32,611 nt of DNA from Paracoccaceae bacterium (GCA_011523445.1 WTGT01000308.1:1-32611), one strand, 5' to 3'; counted from the first letter of the stretch, positions 1-10,838 are shown. A program made the numbers and translations. Notes: a model not told the origin generated them from the sequence alone.

Positions 1-837
1 GCTAAGGGGATATCTGTACCGATCATTGTTTTCCCAAAAGGGGACCGATTTGTTTGTATTGATGGGAATACACGATTAACAGTATATAATGACCTTATTG
101 ATGAAAAGGCACCAGGAGACTGGAATACGATAAACTGTCTTGTTCTTGAGAATCCTGAGCAGCGTGAAATAGAAACTATTAGAGTTACTGCCCACTTGGT
201 TGGTGCACGCGAATGGCCAGCTTACGAAAAGGCCCGTTACCTGCACCACCTTAGAAACGTTCAATTCTTAGACTATAACGAGCTTATCGCAATTTGTGGT
301 GGCAACAGGAAAATAATAGAACAGCAAATCGACGCATTTCATGATATGAACAAGTATTATAGAGATGTAAGCAGCGACGATGCCTTCCAAGTTGATAGAT
401 TTAGCGGCTTTGTTGAGTTGCAGAAAAAAAATATAAAGGATGCAATATTTAAGGCAGACCTTGATTTATACGACTTTGGAAAATGGATTCGCAATGGTCA
501 AATTTATAAACTCGCTGATGTCAGAAAATTACCTTCGGTATTGGCTGATGAAGAAGCAAAATACACATTTATAAATGGTGGTATCCGGTCAATTGAAGAT
601 GCCATCTCGATTGTTGAAGAAAATCGAAAGAAAGATACAAAGACACCAGTAGAAAAAACTACAGTAGCAAAAGCCAGTATGTCTTTATTGGCTCAAGCTT
701 TGCTTGAAAAGGTTAAGACTTTACCAAGAGAGGATTTTGTTGCATTGAGAGATAGGAATTATGAATCTGCTGAACAGGATATAGAACTGTTAAATGATTT
801 GACTGAGAACCTTCTTGATCTACTGCAGGATGTCTGA
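1..837 (+). CDS. ParB-like nuclease/ParB-Srx domain protein (5' truncated by window edge)
   Basis: Frame 1 is open from base 1 (AKGISVPIIVFPKGDRFVCIDGNTRLTVYNDL...AHLVGAREWPAYEKARYLHHL...) to TGA at 835-837. The 'DGNTRLTVY' element and following helix resemble ParB-like domains. The listed ORF start at 196 is internal. Confidence 0.75.
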   Translation, partial: AKGISVPIIVFPKGDRFVCIDGNTRLTVYNDLIDEKAPGDWNTINCLVLENPEQREIETIRVTAHLVGAREWPAYEKARYLHHLRNVQFLDYNELIAICGGNRKIIEQQIDAFHDMNKYYRDVSSDDAFQVDRFSGFVELQKKNIKDAIFKADLDLYDFGKWIRNGQIYKLADVRKLPSVLADEEAKYTFINGGIRSIEDAISIVEENRKKDTKTPVEKTTVAKASMSLLAQALLEKVKTLPREDFVALRDRNYESAEQDIELLNDLTENLLDLLQDV

Positions 838-1282
838 AAGTGCAGCCCACCGAAAATTGGTGGTTGAAACCTCGAATGCAATTAAACGTCTCTATTCGGG
901 AATACATGTTACGATAGATATTAGTGAAAAACCAGGTGATCCCGTACCCACAATAATTGGTGGCTATCGTCCAGACATAGTTGGAAGATGTACTGACCCA
1001 AGAATTCACCTCATTATTGCCGAGGCAAAGATAGGTGGTGATGTGAAACGTCATCATACTTTATGTCAGATAAATGCGTTTATAGGATATCTTGAGTCAA
1101 TGAAATCTGCTGATGGTACATTCATTTTGGCTGTTGAGGGGAATATTAGTGATTACTCAAGAACATTACTAAATCTGAATTACAGGCAAAGAGTTACGGA
1201 AAATATACATATCAAACTGTTTGATGGGCTGGACTTTTGGAGCCTAGGGTCATCTGGAGAAACAATATGGCGTTTATCCTAA
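830..1282 (+). CDS. PD-(D/E)XK superfamily nuclease-like protein
   Basis: ATG at 830 overlaps the upstream stop by 8 nt. Motif 'GYRPDIVG...HLIIAEAKIGGD...QINAFIGYLE' matches a PD-x(n)-ExK core followed by a Q-containing helix. Confidence 0.65.
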   Translation: MSESAAHRKLVVETSNAIKRLYSGIHVTIDISEKPGDPVPTIIGGYRPDIVGRCTDPRIHLIIAEAKIGGDVKRHHTLCQINAFIGYLESMKSADGTFILAVEGNISDYSRTLLNLNYRQRVTENIHIKLFDGLDFWSLGSSGETIWRLS

Positions 1283-2733
1283 GACGGCGACCTGCTCTTT
1301 CAACAAAGCATCAAGCATATGCTTATCAAGTTGATGCCATTCGGTTAGTCAAAGATCTTACCTATGCTGCAATCTTTCATGAACAAGGGCTTGGAAAAAC
1401 AAAAATTGCGATAGACCTTTCTCTATTATGGCTTGAGAATGATATCGTGGACACTGTGTTCATTGTCACAAAGAAGTCGCTAGTTGAAAATTGGAGAAAT
1501 GAAGTAAAAGGACACTCACATATTACTCCTCATATTTTATCAGGAAATAGAGCGCAAAACAGTACATCCCTGAATTCACCAGTACTTATATACATTACCA
1601 ATTATGAAACGATAGCGGCAAATGTAAAACTAATTAAATTATTTTTACAGACCTGTCGTGTTGGTTGTATTTTGGATGAAAGCCAAAAGATTAAAAATCC
1701 GGATGCTAACCTGACTAAGACATTTCACGAGATTGCATCGTTTTTCGATCGACGAATAATTATGACAGGTACCCCAGCTGCGAATCGGCCATATGATATC
1801 TGGGCCCAGATTAAGTTTCTTGATAATGGGGAATCTCTTGGGGGAAACTTTGATACGTTCAGGCAAGAAATGGATTTACCAAAAAACACTGGTAAATCAA
1901 ATGATTACATGAGACGTTTAACTACAATACACAAAAGAATTACACCGTTTACTGTTCGTGAAACCAAAGATACTGCTGGAATTCACTTACCTAATAAAAC
2001 TATTTTTAATCGCTATGTTAAGTTACCTAGTTGGCAGATGGACAGGTATGAAACATATCGGGACGAGTTAGCCTATGAATATAAAATAGAGGGTATTATC
2101 GAAACAGACAAAGTAGATAGCATTCTAAAAAGACTCTTGCGGTTGGTTCAATGTGCATCGAATCCAGGTCTCATTGACGGTAATTATTCACTTGAGCCAG
2201 CTAAATTACCAGTACTAATTGACATGTGCCGTGAGTTCACTAGTGTATCGAAAGTAATCGTTTGGACAGGATTTATAGAAAACGTTGAGTGGCTTTCCAA
2301 AAAACTAAAGGAATTCGACCCTGTGATCATTCATGGGAGCCTTCCTATGCAACATAGAAATGAGTCAGTAAGAAAGTTTATCAATGCGTCGAATCTTGTG
2401 CTTATAGCTACACCTGGTGCAGCAAAAGAGGGCCTAACACTAACAGTAGCAAATCATGCAATATTTTTTGACCGTAGCTTCAGCCTTGATGACTATCTCC
2501 AAGCTCAGGACCGTATACACCGAATATCCCAAACGAAGGATTGTTTTATACACAACTTGATTGCAAATGACACTATCGACGAGTGGGTAGATGTTTTGCT
2601 AACAGCTAAATACAGAGCAGCACAACTCGCTCAAGGGGATATTGATGCTTCAACTTTCAGGGACACCTTCCGTACAGATGTTTCTGAGGTTCTTCAAAGC
2701 GTTTTATTTCCGCAAGGGTCTAACGAACAATAA
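1267..2733 (+). CDS. SNF2-family DEAD/DEAH helicase-like ATPase
   Basis: Walker A-like 'HEQGLGKTKIAIDL', motif II 'ILDESQKIKN', motif III 'MTGTPAANRPYDIW', motif V/VI 'GAAKEGLTLTVANHAIFFDRSFSLDDYLQAQDRIHRISQTKD'. Likely start is ATG 1267, overlapping the upstream stop by 16 nt. Confidence 0.9.
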   Translation: MAFILRRRPALSTKHQAYAYQVDAIRLVKDLTYAAIFHEQGLGKTKIAIDLSLLWLENDIVDTVFIVTKKSLVENWRNEVKGHSHITPHILSGNRAQNSTSLNSPVLIYITNYETIAANVKLIKLFLQTCRVGCILDESQKIKNPDANLTKTFHEIASFFDRRIIMTGTPAANRPYDIWAQIKFLDNGESLGGNFDTFRQEMDLPKNTGKSNDYMRRLTTIHKRITPFTVRETKDTAGIHLPNKTIFNRYVKLPSWQMDRYETYRDELAYEYKIEGIIETDKVDSILKRLLRLVQCASNPGLIDGNYSLEPAKLPVLIDMCREFTSVSKVIVWTGFIENVEWLSKKLKEFDPVIIHGSLPMQHRNESVRKFINASNLVLIATPGAAKEGLTLTVANHAIFFDRSFSLDDYLQAQDRIHRISQTKDCFIHNLIANDTIDEWVDVLLTAKYRAAQLAQGDIDASTFRDTFRTDVSEVLQSVLFPQGSNEQ

Positions 2734-2761
2734 ATTTCCTGAATAACAAGGGTAAACCGAT

Positions 2762-3778
2762 ATGACCAATAATGTAAACACCATAGCTATATTGGGGGAG
2801 GATATATCCACAACTCAAGAGCAATTACCAATCGAAAAACTTAAATTTCTACCTGATAATCCGCGCGTATATGCAGTTATTCGGGAAATGGAGGATTTCG
2901 ACCAACTTACACCGGATGAGAAACAGATTCGAATTTACGATTGTCTACTCAATGAGCCAAGCGTTAAAAAACTAATACCTGAGATTAAAAGAGACCGTGG
3001 TCTACAAGAACCCATAATTGTTCGGTGGGACACTCAGGAAGTAATTGAAGGAAATTCTCGCCTAGCAGTCTATCGAAAGCTTAATTATGATGAACCTGAT
3101 AACGATGCATGGAAAGAAATTCGCTGCCAGGTCGTTACAAAACTCACCGATGATCAACAGACCCGAATTCTAGGTCAAATACATCTCCATGGTAAAACCG
3201 AATGGTCACCATACGCCAAGGCATTATATTGTTATCGTTGGGTAGTTGAGCAGGGTAAGAAGTCTGAAACTTTATCAAAGATAGCAGGTTTTTCAAAACA
3301 AGAAATAAATAAAAATGTTTCTATTATAGAACTCATGACTCAAAATAATGAATTCAATCATTCGAGATATAGTTATTACGATGTTCTGGTCCGTAATAGG
3401 ACGATATCTACTAAAATCAATGAAAATGGAGCTCTAAAAAAGGAAATTCTAACAAGGATTAAGACTGAAGAATTCACTGCTCAAGAATTACGTGATAAAT
3501 TGCCAACAATTATAAAAAAACCAAGAATTCTTAAAAAATTTCAAAATGGAGATGTCTTGTTAAATGAGGCGTTTGATCGTGCCAAGATTAGCGGAGCCGA
3601 ACGCAAACTTAAAAAAATTCGTCAAGACCTTGATGATATTGAAAAGGATGACATCATTTCACTGGAAAGGTCTGAAGCAAAAGCAATGAAATATGAAATT
3701 AGTAAAATCAGTAACAGGCTAAAAAGGGTCTCTGAAATGGTTGAAAAGTGTCTTCAAATTACTACCCCGTTTTCTTGA
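2762..3778 (+). CDS. ParB-like nuclease/ParB-Srx domain protein (second copy)
   Basis: 'GLQEPIIVRWDTQEVIEGNSRLAVYRKL' is a typical ParB-like core, followed by 'HLHGKTEWSPYAKALYCY' and an HTH-like 'LSKIAGFSKQEINKNVSII'. Confidence 0.8.
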   Translation: MTNNVNTIAILGEDISTTQEQLPIEKLKFLPDNPRVYAVIREMEDFDQLTPDEKQIRIYDCLLNEPSVKKLIPEIKRDRGLQEPIIVRWDTQEVIEGNSRLAVYRKLNYDEPDNDAWKEIRCQVVTKLTDDQQTRILGQIHLHGKTEWSPYAKALYCYRWVVEQGKKSETLSKIAGFSKQEINKNVSIIELMTQNNEFNHSRYSYYDVLVRNRTISTKINENGALKKEILTRIKTEEFTAQELRDKLPTIIKKPRILKKFQNGDVLLNEAFDRAKISGAERKLKKIRQDLDDIEKDDIISLERSEAKAMKYEISKISNRLKRVSEMVEKCLQITTPFS

Positions 3779-3793
3779 CCAATATATTTTACT

Positions 3794-5446
3794 ATGAAAA
3801 AGAAAAAAGTACTACTGATTGAACCTGGATATAGTAATAAATATCCTCCTCTGGGTCTAATGAAGCTAGCTTCATACCATAAAGCTCGTGGTGATTATGT
3901 AAAATTTTATAAAGTAGGATTCGACTGTAACATAGGAATTTCATCACTCGTCGAATCCGCATGGGACAGGGTCTATGTCACAACGCTTTTCAGTTTTGAA
4001 TGGAAGCGGACTGCAGAGGCAATAGATTTAGCAATACAGATTGCAGGGATGCAACAGGAGCGGGTTTTCGTTGGTGGAATCGCAGCTTCTCTAATGCACG
4101 ATGAGTACCAGAATGAACCTCGTTGGGCTGGAGTTCGTTTTATCAAGGGTCTCCTATTGGGTCCTCCAGCAATAGCTTTGAAACTTTCAAAAGAAGATTA
4201 CGAATTCGGATCAGATGACCTGAATGGACGTCCAATTGAAGAATGCATACCTGATTACGATATTCTATCAGACATCAATTACACTTACCCCGTACGAGAT
4301 GCTTATTTCGGATACGCATCAAGAGGGTGTGTCCGAAAATGTGCATTTTGTGGAGTTCCCAAGCTTGAAGGTCCACAGAGGGAAATGCCACCCTTGACCG
4401 ACCTCGTCAAAGGTGTTGATTCCGTGCATGGTGTCAAGAAGGACATGGTACTGATGGACAACAATATCACTGCCTCTGCCAGATACAAGGATGTAATTGC
4501 AGAACTTAGGGACTTGGGATTCGAATCAGGAGCTAAAATATCCCGTTCTAATGGTAGAAAAGAAAAAAGAAGAGTTGATTTCAACCAAGGAGTAGACGCA
4601 CGCATCCTTGCCAAATCACCAATGTATCTTAGGGAAATGTCTACAATTTGTATAAGTCCCCTGCGTATTGCATTTGATCATATAGGTGTACGGAAGGTCT
4701 ATGAAGTGGCAATCAGAATGGCAGCAGACAACGATATTACGTCATTGTCTAATTATATGCTTTACAATTTTATGGACTCCCCAAGTGACCTGTACGAACG
4801 GATGCGTCTAAATATCTCCCTTAACGAGGAATTGAGTATCAGAATCTGGTCGTTTCCGATGCGGTATCAACCTGTGACCTTGAAGGAAAGAACCCATATA
4901 GGAAAGTTCTGGAATCGCTATTATTTAAGATCGTTTCAGATCATGCTTCAGGCAACCCATGGTGTGGTAAGCGGCAACCCATCATTCTTCATGAGGGCAT
5001 ACGGGGAAAACAAATATGAATTTGAAAATCTTCTCAGCATGCCCCATGCATTTATTTTCCATCGGGACCATTACGAATTTGGGGATGGCAGACCAGTTCT
5101 AGAAGAATATTTTGAGTATCGGAATAAATTGTCTGAAAGCCAAGAAAAGGAAATGATTAGTCACTTAGCAGGGCCGGATATCGCAATTCCTAGGATTCCC
5201 AGGAACCACTTTGCAGAGTTGATAGGTGACGGAACCATAGACAAAACCATACGCAATGTCTTAAGGTTTCATACACTTGACACAAGGCATCGCTTAGATT
5301 CAAAGGAGACGAATACTCTACCTGAATTTTCGCACATTAACCCAGACATGGTAATGCCTAACGAGGATGAACATGTGGAAGATGCTGGCCTGTACGATGT
5401 TGATGCAACACAACAAGAAAAAGGTGACCAACTTGTCAGCGTTTAA
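3794..5446 (+). CDS. Radical SAM protein with B12-binding-like N-terminal domain
   Basis: CX3CX2C motif in 'YASRGCVRKCAFCGVPK'; N-terminal 'VLLIEPGYSNKYPPLGLMKLASYHKARGDYVKFY...VFVGGIAASL' Rossmann-like segment; 'VDFNQGVDARIL' typical of such enzymes. Confidence 0.88.
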   Translation: MKKKKVLLIEPGYSNKYPPLGLMKLASYHKARGDYVKFYKVGFDCNIGISSLVESAWDRVYVTTLFSFEWKRTAEAIDLAIQIAGMQQERVFVGGIAASLMHDEYQNEPRWAGVRFIKGLLLGPPAIALKLSKEDYEFGSDDLNGRPIEECIPDYDILSDINYTYPVRDAYFGYASRGCVRKCAFCGVPKLEGPQREMPPLTDLVKGVDSVHGVKKDMVLMDNNITASARYKDVIAELRDLGFESGAKISRSNGRKEKRRVDFNQGVDARILAKSPMYLREMSTICISPLRIAFDHIGVRKVYEVAIRMAADNDITSLSNYMLYNFMDSPSDLYERMRLNISLNEELSIRIWSFPMRYQPVTLKERTHIGKFWNRYYLRSFQIMLQATHGVVSGNPSFFMRAYGENKYEFENLLSMPHAFIFHRDHYEFGDGRPVLEEYFEYRNKLSESQEKEMISHLAGPDIAIPRIPRNHFAELIGDGTIDKTIRNVLRFHTLDTRHRLDSKETNTLPEFSHINPDMVMPNEDEHVEDAGLYDVDATQQEKGDQLVSV

Positions 5447-5466
5447 GACTATACCAAGGAGCTGCA

Positions 5467-6942
5467 ATGAAAAAAAAGACTGAACCAGAGTCTCTAGTGG
5501 GGGCAGATATTCTGAATCTTGTTACAACCGGTATGTATCATACTCCACTTGCAGTATATCGTGAATATATTCAGAATTCTGCAGATGCCATTGAGCGATC
5601 AAGATGGCCAGATCAAGGGAGAGTTGATATCTCAATTAGTTCAGGTAAGAGAATTGTAAAAATCAGGGACAATGGTCCTGGGCTCTCACCTTCTCTAGCA
5701 AAAAGGAATCTGATACCAATCGCAAGGAGCTCAAAAAAACAGGGGGTAGATCGTGGATTTAGAGGGATTGGACGACTTTCAGGGCTAGCTTTCGCTGACA
5801 GAATCAAATTCAGGACTAGGAGTAATAAATCACAGCCTGTAACAGAAATCTCCTGGGATGGAAAATCTCTTCGTGCCAATACAGATTCATATATGAGTCC
5901 TGAACAGATCATCAATAATTGCGTAAAGATTTCGAAAATAGAGGGTTGTGATTGGCCCGATAATTTTTTCGAAGTAATAATTGAAGATGTATCCCGATAT
6001 GCAGCTGACAAAATACTTAACCGTGAGGCGGTTCGGAGATATATCGGAGAGATTGGGCCAGTACCCATGTCAGAATCTTATCCATTTTCAAAGGAAGTAG
6101 AGGCGATTGTTTCAAACGAAAAAAAAATGCTAACACTGGAAGTGATTCTGGATGATGAAGAGCCAATCCGACGCATGCATGAATCTGAACTTATATTTTC
6201 TCAACATCGAAAGGATACATATAAGGAAATACAACAATTGAAAATTCCAGCTATCGACGGTGAAAATTACGCTGCGGTAGGATGGATCGCACATACTTCT
6301 TATCTAGGTGCTGTTCCTAAAAGTCTCGGAGTACGAGGAATCCGACTAAGATCAGGAAATATTCAAATTGGTGATGAAGATGTACTTGATCCATTTTTTA
6401 AGGAAGAGCGTTTCAACAGATGGTGCGTTGGTGAATTGCATATCATTGATGAACGAATTAATCCAAATGGCCGCAGGGATTATTTCGACCCCAGCCCACA
6501 CCTAAGACATATAGAAAATCACATCCAATCTATCATTAATGGAGTTGTGAAAAGATGTAGAACAGCTTCATCAAATCGGGTTCAGTCTAGGAAGGTAATA
6601 ACGGTATTGGAACACATGGATAGCGCATATAGTCTTGCAGGGTCAGGATATCTGAAAGCTGTAGATTCGAAAGCTCTCATAGCTGAAGCACTTCTGAGGG
6701 TTAAAGAACTTGAACACGATTTAAGCGAAGATAACCTAAATTGTCATCAAGAAAAAACTAAACTTATTGAACTTAAGAAAAAGCTGAATGGGTTCAAACC
6801 AAAAAGAGGCCGTCCCCATCTTGAAAACATAAGTAGTGGAGAAGTTGCAACTTATCAGAGAGTATTTAGAGCACTTACAGAGCTATGCAATTCACCTGCC
6901 ATGGCAAAGGAGATGATTGAGGGGGTATTAAAATCCGCATAA
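5467..6942 (+). CDS. GHKL/Bergerat-fold ATPase (Hsp90/MORC-like ATP-binding protein)
   Basis: N box 'YREYIQNSADAIE', G1 'KIRDNGPGLS', G2 'RGFRGIGRLSGLAFAD'; C-terminal coiled-coil-like segment and 'KRGRP'. Confidence 0.9.
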   Translation: MKKKTEPESLVGADILNLVTTGMYHTPLAVYREYIQNSADAIERSRWPDQGRVDISISSGKRIVKIRDNGPGLSPSLAKRNLIPIARSSKKQGVDRGFRGIGRLSGLAFADRIKFRTRSNKSQPVTEISWDGKSLRANTDSYMSPEQIINNCVKISKIEGCDWPDNFFEVIIEDVSRYAADKILNREAVRRYIGEIGPVPMSESYPFSKEVEAIVSNEKKMLTLEVILDDEEPIRRMHESELIFSQHRKDTYKEIQQLKIPAIDGENYAAVGWIAHTSYLGAVPKSLGVRGIRLRSGNIQIGDEDVLDPFFKEERFNRWCVGELHIIDERINPNGRRDYFDPSPHLRHIENHIQSIINGVVKRCRTASSNRVQSRKVITVLEHMDSAYSLAGSGYLKAVDSKALIAEALLRVKELEHDLSEDNLNCHQEKTKLIELKKKLNGFKPKRGRPHLENISSGEVATYQRVFRALTELCNSPAMAKEMIEGVLKSA

Positions 6943-7134
6943 TATAAACTGTAGCAAAATTTGGTTCTGAAGGGTTTAGGCAAAATTAATATTTAACTAC
7001 TAAACCCAGTTCGTGGTGTAAATTTAGCATCAATTTTCCGAAAACATTTTTAGTGGGGCAAAACCTATAATTGTTTCGTTTTACGGATAATTGATTCCTG
7101 GTGTTGATGGTATTTGGAGTTGATTGGAGTAATT

Positions 7135-8136
7135 ATGAATTCGAACACACAGAATCAGAAAGAAGTACAAAAAAAGTTTGTTCGGGGTTTGTACTGGGCA
7201 GGTATACCTACCCTGTTCAAATGTGATTACCAGGATACTCCTGAAAACTGTGATATAGTACTTGTTGGTATTCCACACTCGACCGGCAATGGAACAACAC
7301 TTCGGGATCAGCATATGGGACCAAGAGCAGTTAGGGATGTATCAGGCCTTGGACGCAGGGTTCATCTTGACTTTCAGCTTGATCCCTGGGAAAAATGCAG
7401 AATTGCTGATATCGGTGATGTTCCTTTGCTTGAAGGGAACAACAATGAGGCTTCAATCGACCATATAACTGAATTCTTCAGGATAGTAGACAAGGCCGGA
7501 GCCAAGCCAGTTTCCATTGGTGGAGACCACTCGATTACCGGAGGAACTGTTAGGGCCTTGGGAGGGAAGGGTTCCAATTTATCCGGTGGTGAGACTATTG
7601 CTCTGCTTCACATTGATGCCCACACCGATACGTTTCTCCATCTCGAGCATTTTCTGGGGGCCAGAAAATCCGCTGCCCATTGGGGTGCCCAACTTGTAAC
7701 GGAAGGGTATGTCGATGCCCACAGTTCAACTCAAATTGGTATAAGAGGCAATCCAAGGGCACTGGATTGGTATGAGCCAAGCCTTCAACTGGGTTATGAG
7801 TTAATCACCAAAAAGCAATATGATTTGCTAGGAGAGGACTCGGTCAACGAGATAATCAGAAAACGGATAGGTGATAAACCTGTATACATTACGTTTGATT
7901 TAGATAGCCTAGACGTATCAATCGCTCCCGGGGTCGCAAATCTGGAACCGGGAGAGCCCGGGTTCAACTTAAAACAGGCCATCGGTATCCTCAGATCAGT
8001 CCGTGGGTTGAACATAATTGGCGGAGATGTGGTCTGTCTGATGCCAACGGCGGATAATCCTAACAAAATTACCGCCATGGTGGCGACAAGTATAATGTTT
8101 GAAATAATTTCCCTTATTGCTGATTCCCATCAGTAA
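7135..8136 (+). CDS. Ureohydrolase family protein (agmatinase/guanidino-hydrolase-like)
   Basis: Metal-binding motifs 'SIGGDHS', 'LLHIDAHTDT', 'ITFDLDSLDVSIAPGV'. ATG at 7135 chosen over 7114. Substrate cannot be assigned. Confidence 0.85.
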   Translation: MNSNTQNQKEVQKKFVRGLYWAGIPTLFKCDYQDTPENCDIVLVGIPHSTGNGTTLRDQHMGPRAVRDVSGLGRRVHLDFQLDPWEKCRIADIGDVPLLEGNNNEASIDHITEFFRIVDKAGAKPVSIGGDHSITGGTVRALGGKGSNLSGGETIALLHIDAHTDTFLHLEHFLGARKSAAHWGAQLVTEGYVDAHSSTQIGIRGNPRALDWYEPSLQLGYELITKKQYDLLGEDSVNEIIRKRIGDKPVYITFDLDSLDVSIAPGVANLEPGEPGFNLKQAIGILRSVRGLNIIGGDVVCLMPTADNPNKITAMVATSIMFEIISLIADSHQ

Positions 8137-8171
8137 GGTTTCCCAAAGAAAATCTGAGTTCATGTAAAAGA

Positions 8172-10838
8172 ATGAATCAAAACAATCATAATCTTACTCC
8201 AATGATGGCTCAATACATGGAGATCAAGAGCCAACATCAGGACTCACTCCTGTTCTACCGAATGGGTGATTTCTATGAGATGTTTTTTGATGATGCGGTA
8301 GAGGCTTCCGAAGCACTGGACATTGCCCTTACAAAGAGGGGTAAGACCAACAATATGGACATACCCATGTGTGGTGTTCCAGTTCATGCTGCTGATCAAT
8401 ATCTTCAATTGTTGATTCGCAAGGGTTTCAGGGTTGCAGTTTGTGAACAAACCGAAGATCCTTCAGAAGCAAAAAAGAGAGGAAACAAGGCAATTGTTAA
8501 GAGGGAGGTCATAAGGGTCATCACGCCAGGAACCCTTACGGAAGATTCCCTTCTCACTGCCAATCAAAACAATTACATCGCTGCAATTCACCAAATTCGC
8601 AAATCCGTAGCTCTGGCTTGGGCAGATATTTCATCGGGCAGTTTTCATGTTACGAGTTTTCCGTTGGTCAATCTTGCTTCACAACTGTCCAGAATTTCCC
8701 CCAAGGAAGTGATTTATCCCGAGACTTATTCCGCACAGATATTGGGTATCGTCAGGGAAACCGCCGATTCATTGACTCCCTTGTCCGATGTCCACTTCGA
8801 TAGCAGGATGGCAAAACGAAATTTGTCAGAAATGTATGAGGTTGCAACCTTAGATTCATTTGGCCAGTTCAATAGGTCGGAACTGGCGTGTCTGGGGGCA
8901 ATTGTTGCCTATCTGGAAATTACGCAGCAAGGTAAAATTCCCAAGTTGCAATTCCCGAGTAGGGAAAAATCGGAGGATACACTTCAGATTGATGCTGCAA
9001 CCAGAAAAAACCTTGAAATCACTAGAAACCTTTCCGGAGGCAAAAACAACACATTGTTGTCGGTACTGGACAAAACAAGAACGGCAAGTGGGGCAAGAAT
9101 GCTTGAGAGATGGCTGGCAAATCCATCTACTAATATCGGTCTTATCGCCAAAAGGCAAAACGATGTTGAAACCTTTTATTCTCAATCTGATTCCCGTAGG
9201 GAAATTCGAGACAAACTAAAAATGGTTCCAGACCTCCAGCGTTCCTTGTCGAGGTTGGCATTGGAAAGGGGAGGTCCAAGAGACCTCAATGCCATCAAGA
9301 CAGGTATAAAACAGGCCTTCCTCATCAATCAGGAAGTGCGTGTAATTGACGGGGTTTCCGAGCAATTGAAAGCTTCGCTGGCGTTGCTTGCCAATCTGGA
9401 AGGGCTGGTACAGGATCTGTCACAAGCCCTGATGGCAAGTGTTCCCCTTGCCACGAGAGATGGAGATTTTATAGCCAAGGGTTTTGACGAGGAGTTGGAT
9501 GAAACCAGAAAACTTCGTGATGAAACTAGGGTTGTGATTGCCGAATTGGAAAAAAAGTATGCCCAATTGGCAGACATTCCCAGACTCAAGGTTCGTTTCA
9601 ATAAACTGCTGGGATATTATGTTGAAACTCCATCTTCATTTTATTCCAAAATGGTATCACAACCCTTGTCGGATACCTTCATTCACCGTCAATCGACTTC
9701 GACGGCCTGCCGCTTCACAAGCAAGGAGCTTTCCGACTTGGAATCACGGATTGTCAATGCCCAACAAAAAACGGTCGAGATAGAATTAAGGCTCTTTGAG
9801 CAATTTCGGGAAGCAATATTGGCCCAGGCGAATGATATTTTCTTTATTGCCCAAACCCTCTCGGAAATGGATGTCATTGCAACCCTTGCGGAAATTGCCC
9901 ATACCAATAATTGGTGCAAACCGGTTCTGGATGAAAGTTGTGACCTTGAGATCGTGGCGGGCAGGCATCCGGTTGTTGAGGAATCACTCCGCAAAAACAA
10001 CCAGACACCCTTTGTAACAAATGATTGCAATATCAGCGACGAAGGAAGAATCATATTGTTGACCGGACCGAATATGGCAGGCAAGTCTACCTTTCTTCGT
10101 CAAAATGCCTTGTTGGCCCTTTTGGCCCAAATTGGGTCATACGTACCTGCCAAGAAAGCCAGAATAGGTATAATTTCGCAACTGTTTTCCCGTGTTGGAG
10201 CTGCCGACGATCTGGCCAAGGGACGTTCAACCTTCATGGTTGAAATGGTGGAAACAGCCGCAATTTTAAATCAGGCAGACCATAGAACATTGGTAATACT
10301 GGATGAAATCGGGAGAGGTACTGCAACATTTGATGGGTTATCCATAGCTTGGGCAACCCTGGAGTACATTCATGACAAAATCAAGTGCAGAACTCTCTTT
10401 GCCACTCATTTCCATGAGTTGACCGAACTCTCGAACCGTTTGCCGAATTTGTTCAATTTAACGATCAAGGTAAAGGAATGGCAGGGGGATGTGGTTTTTC
10501 TCCACGAGGTCGTTGAAGGGTTTGCGGACCGATCATACGGTGTCCAGGTCGCCAAATTGGCCGGGTTGCCCAGGGCTGTGGTAAGACGGGCAGATGCCAT
10601 CCTGAAAAAACTGGAACAACCCCGGGGCAAGGGAAAAGACAACATTCTCTCCATGTATCAGGAACTCCCCCTTTTCGCGGCTTCCTCCATGTTTGACCAA
10701 CAATCCATTGAAGTCGAACCTTCACCAGTTGAGAAGAAAATCATGAATGTCAACCCCGATGAACTGACACCCCTTGAGGCCCTTTCCCTCCTATATGAAC
10801 TCAAGGATACACAAGTCAAATCAGAAGGTGAATTATAA
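8172..10838 (+). CDS. mutS: DNA mismatch repair protein MutS
   Basis: N-terminal 'MAQYMEIKSQHQDSLLFYRMGDFYEMFFDDA', Walker A 'LTGPNMAGKSTFLRQNAL', 'LVILDEIGRGTATFDGLSIAWA', 'LFATHFHELTEL'. Confidence 0.98.
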   Translation: MNQNNHNLTPMMAQYMEIKSQHQDSLLFYRMGDFYEMFFDDAVEASEALDIALTKRGKTNNMDIPMCGVPVHAADQYLQLLIRKGFRVAVCEQTEDPSEAKKRGNKAIVKREVIRVITPGTLTEDSLLTANQNNYIAAIHQIRKSVALAWADISSGSFHVTSFPLVNLASQLSRISPKEVIYPETYSAQILGIVRETADSLTPLSDVHFDSRMAKRNLSEMYEVATLDSFGQFNRSELACLGAIVAYLEITQQGKIPKLQFPSREKSEDTLQIDAATRKNLEITRNLSGGKNNTLLSVLDKTRTASGARMLERWLANPSTNIGLIAKRQNDVETFYSQSDSRREIRDKLKMVPDLQRSLSRLALERGGPRDLNAIKTGIKQAFLINQEVRVIDGVSEQLKASLALLANLEGLVQDLSQALMASVPLATRDGDFIAKGFDEELDETRKLRDETRVVIAELEKKYAQLADIPRLKVRFNKLLGYYVETPSSFYSKMVSQPLSDTFIHRQSTSTACRFTSKELSDLESRIVNAQQKTVEIELRLFEQFREAILAQANDIFFIAQTLSEMDVIATLAEIAHTNNWCKPVLDESCDLEIVAGRHPVVEESLRKNNQTPFVTNDCNISDEGRIILLTGPNMAGKSTFLRQNALLALLAQIGSYVPAKKARIGIISQLFSRVGAADDLAKGRSTFMVEMVETAAILNQADHRTLVILDEIGRGTATFDGLSIAWATLEYIHDKIKCRTLFATHFHELTELSNRLPNLFNLTIKVKEWQGDVVFLHEVVEGFADRSYGVQVAKLAGLPRAVVRRADAILKKLEQPRGKGKDNILSMYQELPLFAASSMFDQQSIEVEPSPVEKKIMNVNPDELTPLEALSLLYELKDTQVKSEGEL

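What the first reader, a model, noticed from the sequence alone, without database searches (positions are those of the whole stretch)
1..6942. Candidate undescribed multi-gene conflict/DNA-modification system: ParB - PD-(D/E)XK - SNF2 - ParB - radical SAM - GHKL ATPase
Seen: six co-directional ORFs with overlaps of 8 and 16 nt or gaps of 15-28 nt, consistent with one translationally coupled operon. Its domains are DNA-engaging or catalytic: two ParB-like proteins, a small nuclease, a SNF2 motor, a radical SAM enzyme and a Bergerat-fold ATPase. Known: SNF2 ATPases, PD-(D/E)XK nucleases and MORC/Hsp90-like GHKL ATPases recur in restriction-like and phage-defence systems; radical SAM enzymes and ParB/Srx-fold proteins also occur in DNA base-modification and nucleotide-analogue pathways. 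Inference: the GHKL and SNF2 ATPases could form a sensing/remodelling module, the nuclease an effector, and radical SAM plus ParB proteins a modification or nucleotide-chemistry arm. I do not recognise this six-part set as a named system. The left edge truncates the operon, so genes may be missing.
Basis: partly seen in the sequence, partly recalled or inferred. Interest (0 to 1): 0.88.

Follow-up and report, generated by a model that had tools for sequence, protein, structure and literature searches.

The report
Modular radical-SAM/Hsp90-like-ATPase nuclease operon
A bacterial operon pairs a radical-chemistry enzyme and an Hsp90-like ATPase with a swappable set of DNA-cutting proteins; the same kit recurs on plasmids and chromosomes of about ten phyla, has no name that we could find, and looks like a mobile system that marks or senses DNA and destroys foreign DNA, although its function has not been tested.

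Summary
The six ORFs, their order and spacing are confirmed. The window's left edge is a contig end and removes only about 64 codons of the first gene; in the nearest relative the operon starts with that gene. All six genes are intact and under purifying selection, and in three congeners the site is empty. The set is a real recurrent system. A scan of 85,462 species genomes gave 465 relatives of the radical SAM (rSAM) protein. In 83 non-redundant loci examined, rSAM and the Hsp90-like GHKL ATPase are same-strand neighbours in 81. This core combines with interchangeable cassettes: ParB1–PD-(D/E)XK–SNF2–ParB2 (43 loci), NurA–HerA–GHKL (8), PIN–GHKL (16), a DpdB/DndB-like protein (29), a DndB–HEPN fusion (16). 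Distance correlations split the window operon into rSAM+GHKL (r 0.92) and SNF2+ParB1+ParB2 (0.84–0.92), with 0.36–0.60 between them. On plasmids the ParB cassette occurs only with the core. I found no PADLOC system or paper describing it. Best reading: a restriction–modification-like conflict system whose rSAM–GHKL core supplies a mark or licence and whose nuclease cassettes attack unmarked DNA. The system's existence is well supported; chemistry, substrate and anti-phage role are inferred.

The parts
1..837 (+). ParB1: ParB/Srx-fold protein with DGNTR motif; N-terminal ~64 codons lost at the contig end
   Evidence: ORF; full 342-aa orthologue L014:7551-8579, 88% identical; invariant GNTR in family
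830..1282 (+). Small PD-(D/E)XK nuclease (PD...EAK), ATG at 830
   Evidence: motif in 37 of 38 family members
1267..2733 (+). SNF2-type helicase/translocase, ATG at 1267
   Evidence: Pfam SNF2 2.9e-30 and Helicase_C 1.4e-15; helicase part like ZorD and DpdE
2762..3778 (+). ParB2: second ParB/Srx-fold protein with EGNSR motif
   Evidence: PHROG ParB 1.2e-6; invariant E-G-N-x-R
3794..5446 (+). Radical SAM enzyme with N-terminal cobalamin-binding-like domain; CxxxCxFC and DFNQGxDxR motifs
   Evidence: PHROG 2.9e-38; AF2 pLDDT 87; PDB matches MgmA, TsrM, MiaB; motifs 83/83
5467..6942 (+). Hsp90-like GHKL ATPase (N-box REYxQNxxD, G2 GFRGIGRL)
   Evidence: adjacent to rSAM in 81/83 loci

Best explanation
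The operon is a horizontally spread, modular anti-invader system with restriction-modification logic. Shown: a core (rSAM + Hsp90-like GHKL ATPase) is inherited as a unit and is joined to exchangeable nucleic-acid-engaging cassettes, here ParB1-PD-(D/E)XK-SNF2-ParB2; elsewhere NurA-HerA-GHKL, PIN-GHKL, a DpdB-like ParB-fold protein, or DndB-HEPN. Inferred: the rSAM enzyme, related in fold to cobalamin-domain methylases and MiaB-type nucleic-acid modifiers, installs a small carbon- or sulphur-containing group on DNA (most likely) with ATP-driven help from the GHKL clamp, so labelling self. The ParB-fold subunits bind DNA or nucleotides, the SNF2 motor tracks along DNA, and the PD-(D/E)XK subunit cuts DNA that lacks the label. 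The mark, the substrate and the trigger have not been shown.
For: Recurrence: 465 relatives in a scan of 85,462 species genomes, in Rhodobacteraceae, Nitrospirales, Latescibacterota, Binatota, Dehalococcoidia, Gemmatimonadota, Acidobacteria, Dadabacteria and others. rSAM-GHKL same-strand neighbours in 81/83, median overlap 4 nt. 75/83 carry at least one cassette. Cassette structure: rSAM-GHKL r 0.92; SNF2-ParB1 0.92; SNF2-ParB2 0.84; between cassettes 0.36-0.60. Among 72,556 plasmids, full-length rSAM and full-length GHKL1 lie on the same 12 records, and all 7 records with ParB1/ParB2 are among these. In IMG/VR 7/7 ParB1 loci have an rSAM of the wider family in the locus, one of them (L209) a divergent compact phage-type rSAM directly upstream. 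Modification link: in 27 of 29 loci with the DGQHR-annotated protein its gene ends within 150 nt of the rSAM gene, median overlap 8 nt; the one tested matches DpdB at 8e-19. DpdB is the ParB-like ATPase that works with DpdA in putting dPreQ0 into DNA (PMC12839542); the SNF2 protein matches DpdE (1e-35). rSAM fold: MgmA 3e-11, TsrM, MiaB bound to RNA. Mobility: conjugative plasmids, empty site in three congeners. Constraint: dN/dS 0.06-0.27.
Against: No experiment links it to phage or plasmid defence. The substrate of the rSAM enzyme is unknown: its best fold matches act on protein, RNA and small molecules alike. The window's own version and the related sponge-associated loci lack the DpdB-like subunit, and the host genome has no PF14072 protein. 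The cobalamin motif DxHxxG is absent (1/83) and only the three radical-SAM cysteines are invariant, so it is neither a classical B12 enzyme nor a classical methylthiotransferase. Some cassettes (PIN, HEPN) suggest RNA cleavage. Only the best 80 of 465 genome hits were inspected, and those loci were chosen through rSAM.
Confidence: 0.45

Rival explanations
1. Same defence system, but the rSAM enzyme modifies a protein partner (GHKL, ParB or nuclease) or makes a small signalling or chain-terminating molecule; the core is a sensor or activator, not a DNA-marking arm.
For: Best PDB match MgmA methylates a protein glutamine and others act on small molecules. The core is constant while effectors vary, as for a sensor. 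Hsp90-like GHKL could be a switch.
Against: Close coupling of the rSAM gene with DpdB-like proteins of DNA-modification systems in 27 loci. Viperin-type radical SAM models did not match.
Confidence: 0.25
2. A maintenance, transfer or repair device of plasmids and integrative elements (ParB, SNF2, HerA-NurA), not an immune system.
For: Found on conjugative plasmids and on contigs classed as viral; ParB and HerA/NurA families are used in segregation and end resection.
Against: No ParA within the operon; also chromosomal between opuAC-like and arginase-like genes without other element genes; interchange of PIN, HEPN, NurA and PD-(D/E)XK nucleases fits effectors better.
Confidence: 0.15
3. An RNA-directed system: the rSAM enzyme modifies tRNA or rRNA and PIN/HEPN partners cut unmodified RNA.
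For: MiaB-RNA complexes are among the top fold matches; PIN and HEPN partners occur.
Against: The window operon has PD-(D/E)XK, SNF2 and ParB parts, all DNA-type; PIN/HEPN cassettes were not seen in 57 of the 83 loci.
Confidence: 0.1
4. Chance neighbourhood or decayed metabolic/phage fragment.
For: None beyond the contig-edge truncation.
Against: Recurrence across phyla, intact ORFs, purifying selection.
Confidence: 0.01

Closest known systems
Dpd (7-deazaguanine DNA modification-restriction) systems
   Same: DpdB-like ParB-fold protein next to the modifying-enzyme candidate in 29 of 83 loci; SNF2 protein related to DpdE
   Different: No DpdA (TGT) or DpdC in the operon; a radical SAM enzyme and GHKL ATPase instead; no DpdB in the window version
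Dnd/Ssp phosphorothioate systems
   Same: DndB-type ParB-fold accessory (PF14072) in many loci; exchangeable nuclease modules around a core, as argued for Dnd in PMC10853773
   Different: No DndC/D/E or SspB/C/D
MORC/paraMORC GHKL restriction operons (PMC2292703)
   Same: GHKL ATPase with SF2/SNF2 helicase and restriction-fold nuclease
   Different: GHKL is Hsp90-like and tied to a radical SAM enzyme; no DNA methylase; a ParB pair. That paper does not use the term radical SAM (0 hits)
Zorya (ZorD)
   Same: SNF2 helicase domain closest to ZorD in PADLOC (4e-44)
   Different: No ZorA/ZorB; the helicase is a separate protein of about 488 aa without the nuclease fusion
Cobalamin-domain radical SAM enzymes and MiaB/RimO
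   Same: Same two-domain architecture
   Different: About 14% identity; no DxHxxG, only three invariant cysteines

Membership tests
Dpd system | DpdA (TGT-like) base-exchange enzyme | tested here: not met
   No TGT family on any of the six proteins
Dpd system | DpdB partner ATPase | tested here: not met
   Absent from the window operon and no PF14072 in its genome; present in 29/83 relatives
Dnd system | DndC, DndD, DndE core | tested here: not met
   No such families on the six proteins
Zorya | ZorA/ZorB motor plus ZorD with Mrr-like nuclease | tested here: not met
   Only the helicase region of ZorD models matches
MORC/paraMORC restriction systems | GHKL+S5 ATPase beside SF2 helicase and nuclease | tested here: inconclusive
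   GHKL, SNF2 and nuclease present; the family-specific S5 motif was not tested; closest PDB is HtpG/Hsp90
Radical SAM superfamily | CxxxCxxC cluster motif in a radical SAM fold | tested here: met
   83/83; fold matches
Cobalamin-dependent radical SAM methylases | Cobalamin-binding Rossmann domain (DxHxxG when His-on) | tested here: inconclusive
   Domain fold matches; DxHxxG absent in 82/83, as in some members such as TsrM (own knowledge)
Viperin-type antiviral radical SAM | Viperin family match | tested here: not met
   No hit in PADLOC or NCBIfam
ParABS partition | ParA ATPase in the operon | tested here: not met
   No ParA among the six
Anti-phage defence system | Demonstrated protection | not testable with these tools
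   Needs plaque and transformation assays

The most novel reading that the evidence does not exclude
A radical SAM enzyme, aided by an Hsp90-like ATPase, installs a previously unknown DNA modification that serves as the self-mark of a widespread restriction-like immune system with interchangeable nuclease cassettes.
Probability: 0.35. Interest if true: 0.92.

Novelty: new variant of a known kind. Interest (0 to 1): 0.76.

Why it matters
No PADLOC model or searched paper joins a radical SAM enzyme with a GHKL ATPase and these nuclease cassettes. If the rSAM enzyme marks DNA, it would be a new self-mark chemistry in bacterial immunity, parallel to Dpd and Dnd. The system also occurs on plasmids of culturable Rhizobium and Novosphingobium, so it can be tested directly. 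It gives a function to test for several 'radical SAM', 'DGQHR domain' and 'ATP-binding' proteins now left without one.

Tried and rejected
A single-sequence rSAM scan of viral contigs found nothing; the alignment scan did. DGQHR plus radical SAM gave only one unrelated paper. The idea that whole genes are missing upstream was rejected with the congener locus and the end of contig C41. A class-wide search of 387 genomes found no further full-length copy, so the system is sparse outside the genus. Phage neighbours of distant compact rSAMs were scanned for hints of the substrate: PAPS-reductase-like, DNA methylase and HNH families appear, but not strongly enough to fix a chemistry. An unrelated SNF2 hit at L043 and a weak one at L070 were dropped and the correlations recomputed. 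The 10-kb insert of G003 at the same site is, by reading of its ORFs, an ordinary sugar-transport cluster.

Full report
Observation. One search lists the six ORFs at the stated places. With the ATG starts at 830 and 1267 the overlaps are 8 and 16 nt and the gaps 28, 15 and 20 nt, exactly as reported. The window is the whole of contig C144 of a draft genome of 2.44 Mb in 345 contigs, so base 1 is a contig end. In the closest relative (G001; the same contig in the named collection is a Rhodobacteraceae MAG) the same six genes lie in the same order. The first gene there is 342 aa and sits behind a divergent OpuAC-like transporter gene. The window therefore lacks about 64 codons of ParB1 and, judged from this relative, no whole gene. 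The own genome's OpuAC-like gene lies at the end of contig C41, with about 53 bases at the contig tip that do not match the empty-site relative.

Integrity. Between the window and G001 all six genes are open and dN/dS is 0.06-0.27. dS of the operon (0.63-1.06) exceeds that of the two flanking genes (0.22-0.44), which suggests that the operon and its flanks have had different histories, for example replacement by recombination. In G005, G006 and G008 the two flanking genes are separated by only about 167-193 bp, i.e. an empty site.

Recurrence. An alignment scan of one genome per species found 465 relatives of the rSAM protein, of which the best 80 were read. A plasmid search found 12 full-length records and the viral collection 80 loci, most of them distant. 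In 83 non-redundant loci with a full-scoring rSAM, GHKL1 is adjacent on the same strand in 81; the two without it end inside or just after rSAM (L065, L053). Cassette counts were S (ParB1-PD-(D/E)XK-SNF2-ParB2) 43, N (NurA-HerA-GHKL) 8, P (PIN_8-GHKL) 16, D (DGQHR-annotated, DndB/DpdB-like) 29, H (DndB-HEPN fusion) 16. Eight loci had none, most of them cut by a contig end. On the rSAM tree the S label changes 21 times, and distances agree within but not between cassettes: rSAM-GHKL1 0.92, SNF2-ParB1 0.92, SNF2-ParB2 0.84, ParB1-ParB2 0.87, against 0.36-0.60 across. The phylum labels need 18 changes for 12 groups. Several carriers are long contigs or whole chromosomes, so binning error cannot explain all of the spread, though it may explain short ones such as the Poribacteria contig L020.

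Dependence. On plasmids the 12 records with full-length rSAM and the 12 with full-length GHKL1 are the same records, and all 7 with ParB1/ParB2 are among them. Among 7 IMG/VR loci found through ParB1 alone, all have an rSAM of the wider family. In L209 it is a divergent compact phage-type enzyme with CxxxCxxC, directly upstream of ParB1 and without GHKL. These tests were not selected through rSAM.

Enzymes. Motifs: radical-SAM cysteines and DFNQGxDxR 83/83; GHKL N-box 78/80; SNF2 Walker A 44/45; PD...E-K 37/38; ParB1 GNTR 38/39. The rSAM model (pLDDT 87) matches MgmA (3e-11), TsrM, MiaB, OxsB, TokK and CysS. By sequence the closest solved relatives are RimO/MiaB, only weakly. The GHKL protein is nearest to HtpG/Hsp90. 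The small protein's model is a restriction-like fold with weak matches, so its nuclease assignment rests mainly on the invariant H, PD, EAK, D, Q pattern.

Mechanism. The DGQHR-annotated protein overlaps the rSAM gene (27 of 29 within 150 nt, median overlap 8 nt) and, for the one tested, is closest to DpdB (8e-19). DpdB is described as the ParB-like ATPase that drives insertion of dPreQ0 into DNA (PMC12839542), and dpd islands have separate synthesis and restriction operons (PMC11888242). By analogy the rSAM-GHKL core is proposed as the modification arm and the nuclease cassettes as restriction arms. This is inference. A protein or small-molecule substrate is not excluded.

Known systems. PADLOC gives no system-level match. 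Full-text searches found no paper with the combination. The only earlier notice met was the ParB-HEPN fusion Saro_3948 in the HEPN survey (PMC3710099), which I take to be of the same type as the H cassette; its identity with the pNL1 gene was not verified. Subscription papers and preprints outside the library could not be searched.

Verdict. The finding is a real, widespread, modular and apparently unnamed system. Its function is plausible but untested.

Noticed in passing
L209:7616-12871: ParB1-PD-(D/E)XK-SNF2-ParB2 cassette next to a divergent compact phage-type rSAM and without GHKL: possible independent pairing of the cassette with another rSAM branch.
   Followed up: partly
L118:9145-9945 and similar loci: Compact phage rSAMs (about 300 aa) have a PAPS-reductase-like gene within three genes in 10 of 69 viral loci; DNA methylases occur nearby too.
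   Followed up: partly
L028:17253-20141: An unassigned 332-aa protein beside a further GHKL ATPase; the 332-aa family recurs in L076, L083, L086 and L095: likely another cassette.
   Followed up: no
L054:3220-4851: Family of about 543 aa without Pfam match near the core in six loci.
   Followed up: no
L015:8982-10658: HerA-like protein with a variant P-loop (GxSGxATKTS) but a conserved DELNKFAP motif.
   Followed up: partly
L063, L071; L016, L018: One Azospirillum genome and G003 each carry two copies of the core with different cassettes.
   Followed up: no
L200:1072-11346: G003 has a different insert of about 10 kb (sugar ABC transporter genes and others) between the same flanking genes: the site may be a hotspot.
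   Followed up: partly
window:7114-28482: Rest of the window is housekeeping: arginase-like, MutS, sulfate permease, AMP-binding enzyme, GrpE, HrcA, HemN-like radical SAM, OmpA, NusA, IF-2.
   Followed up: yes
window:1-6942 versus 7114-10838: Operon dS against G001 is about 2-4 times that of the flanking genes.
   Followed up: partly
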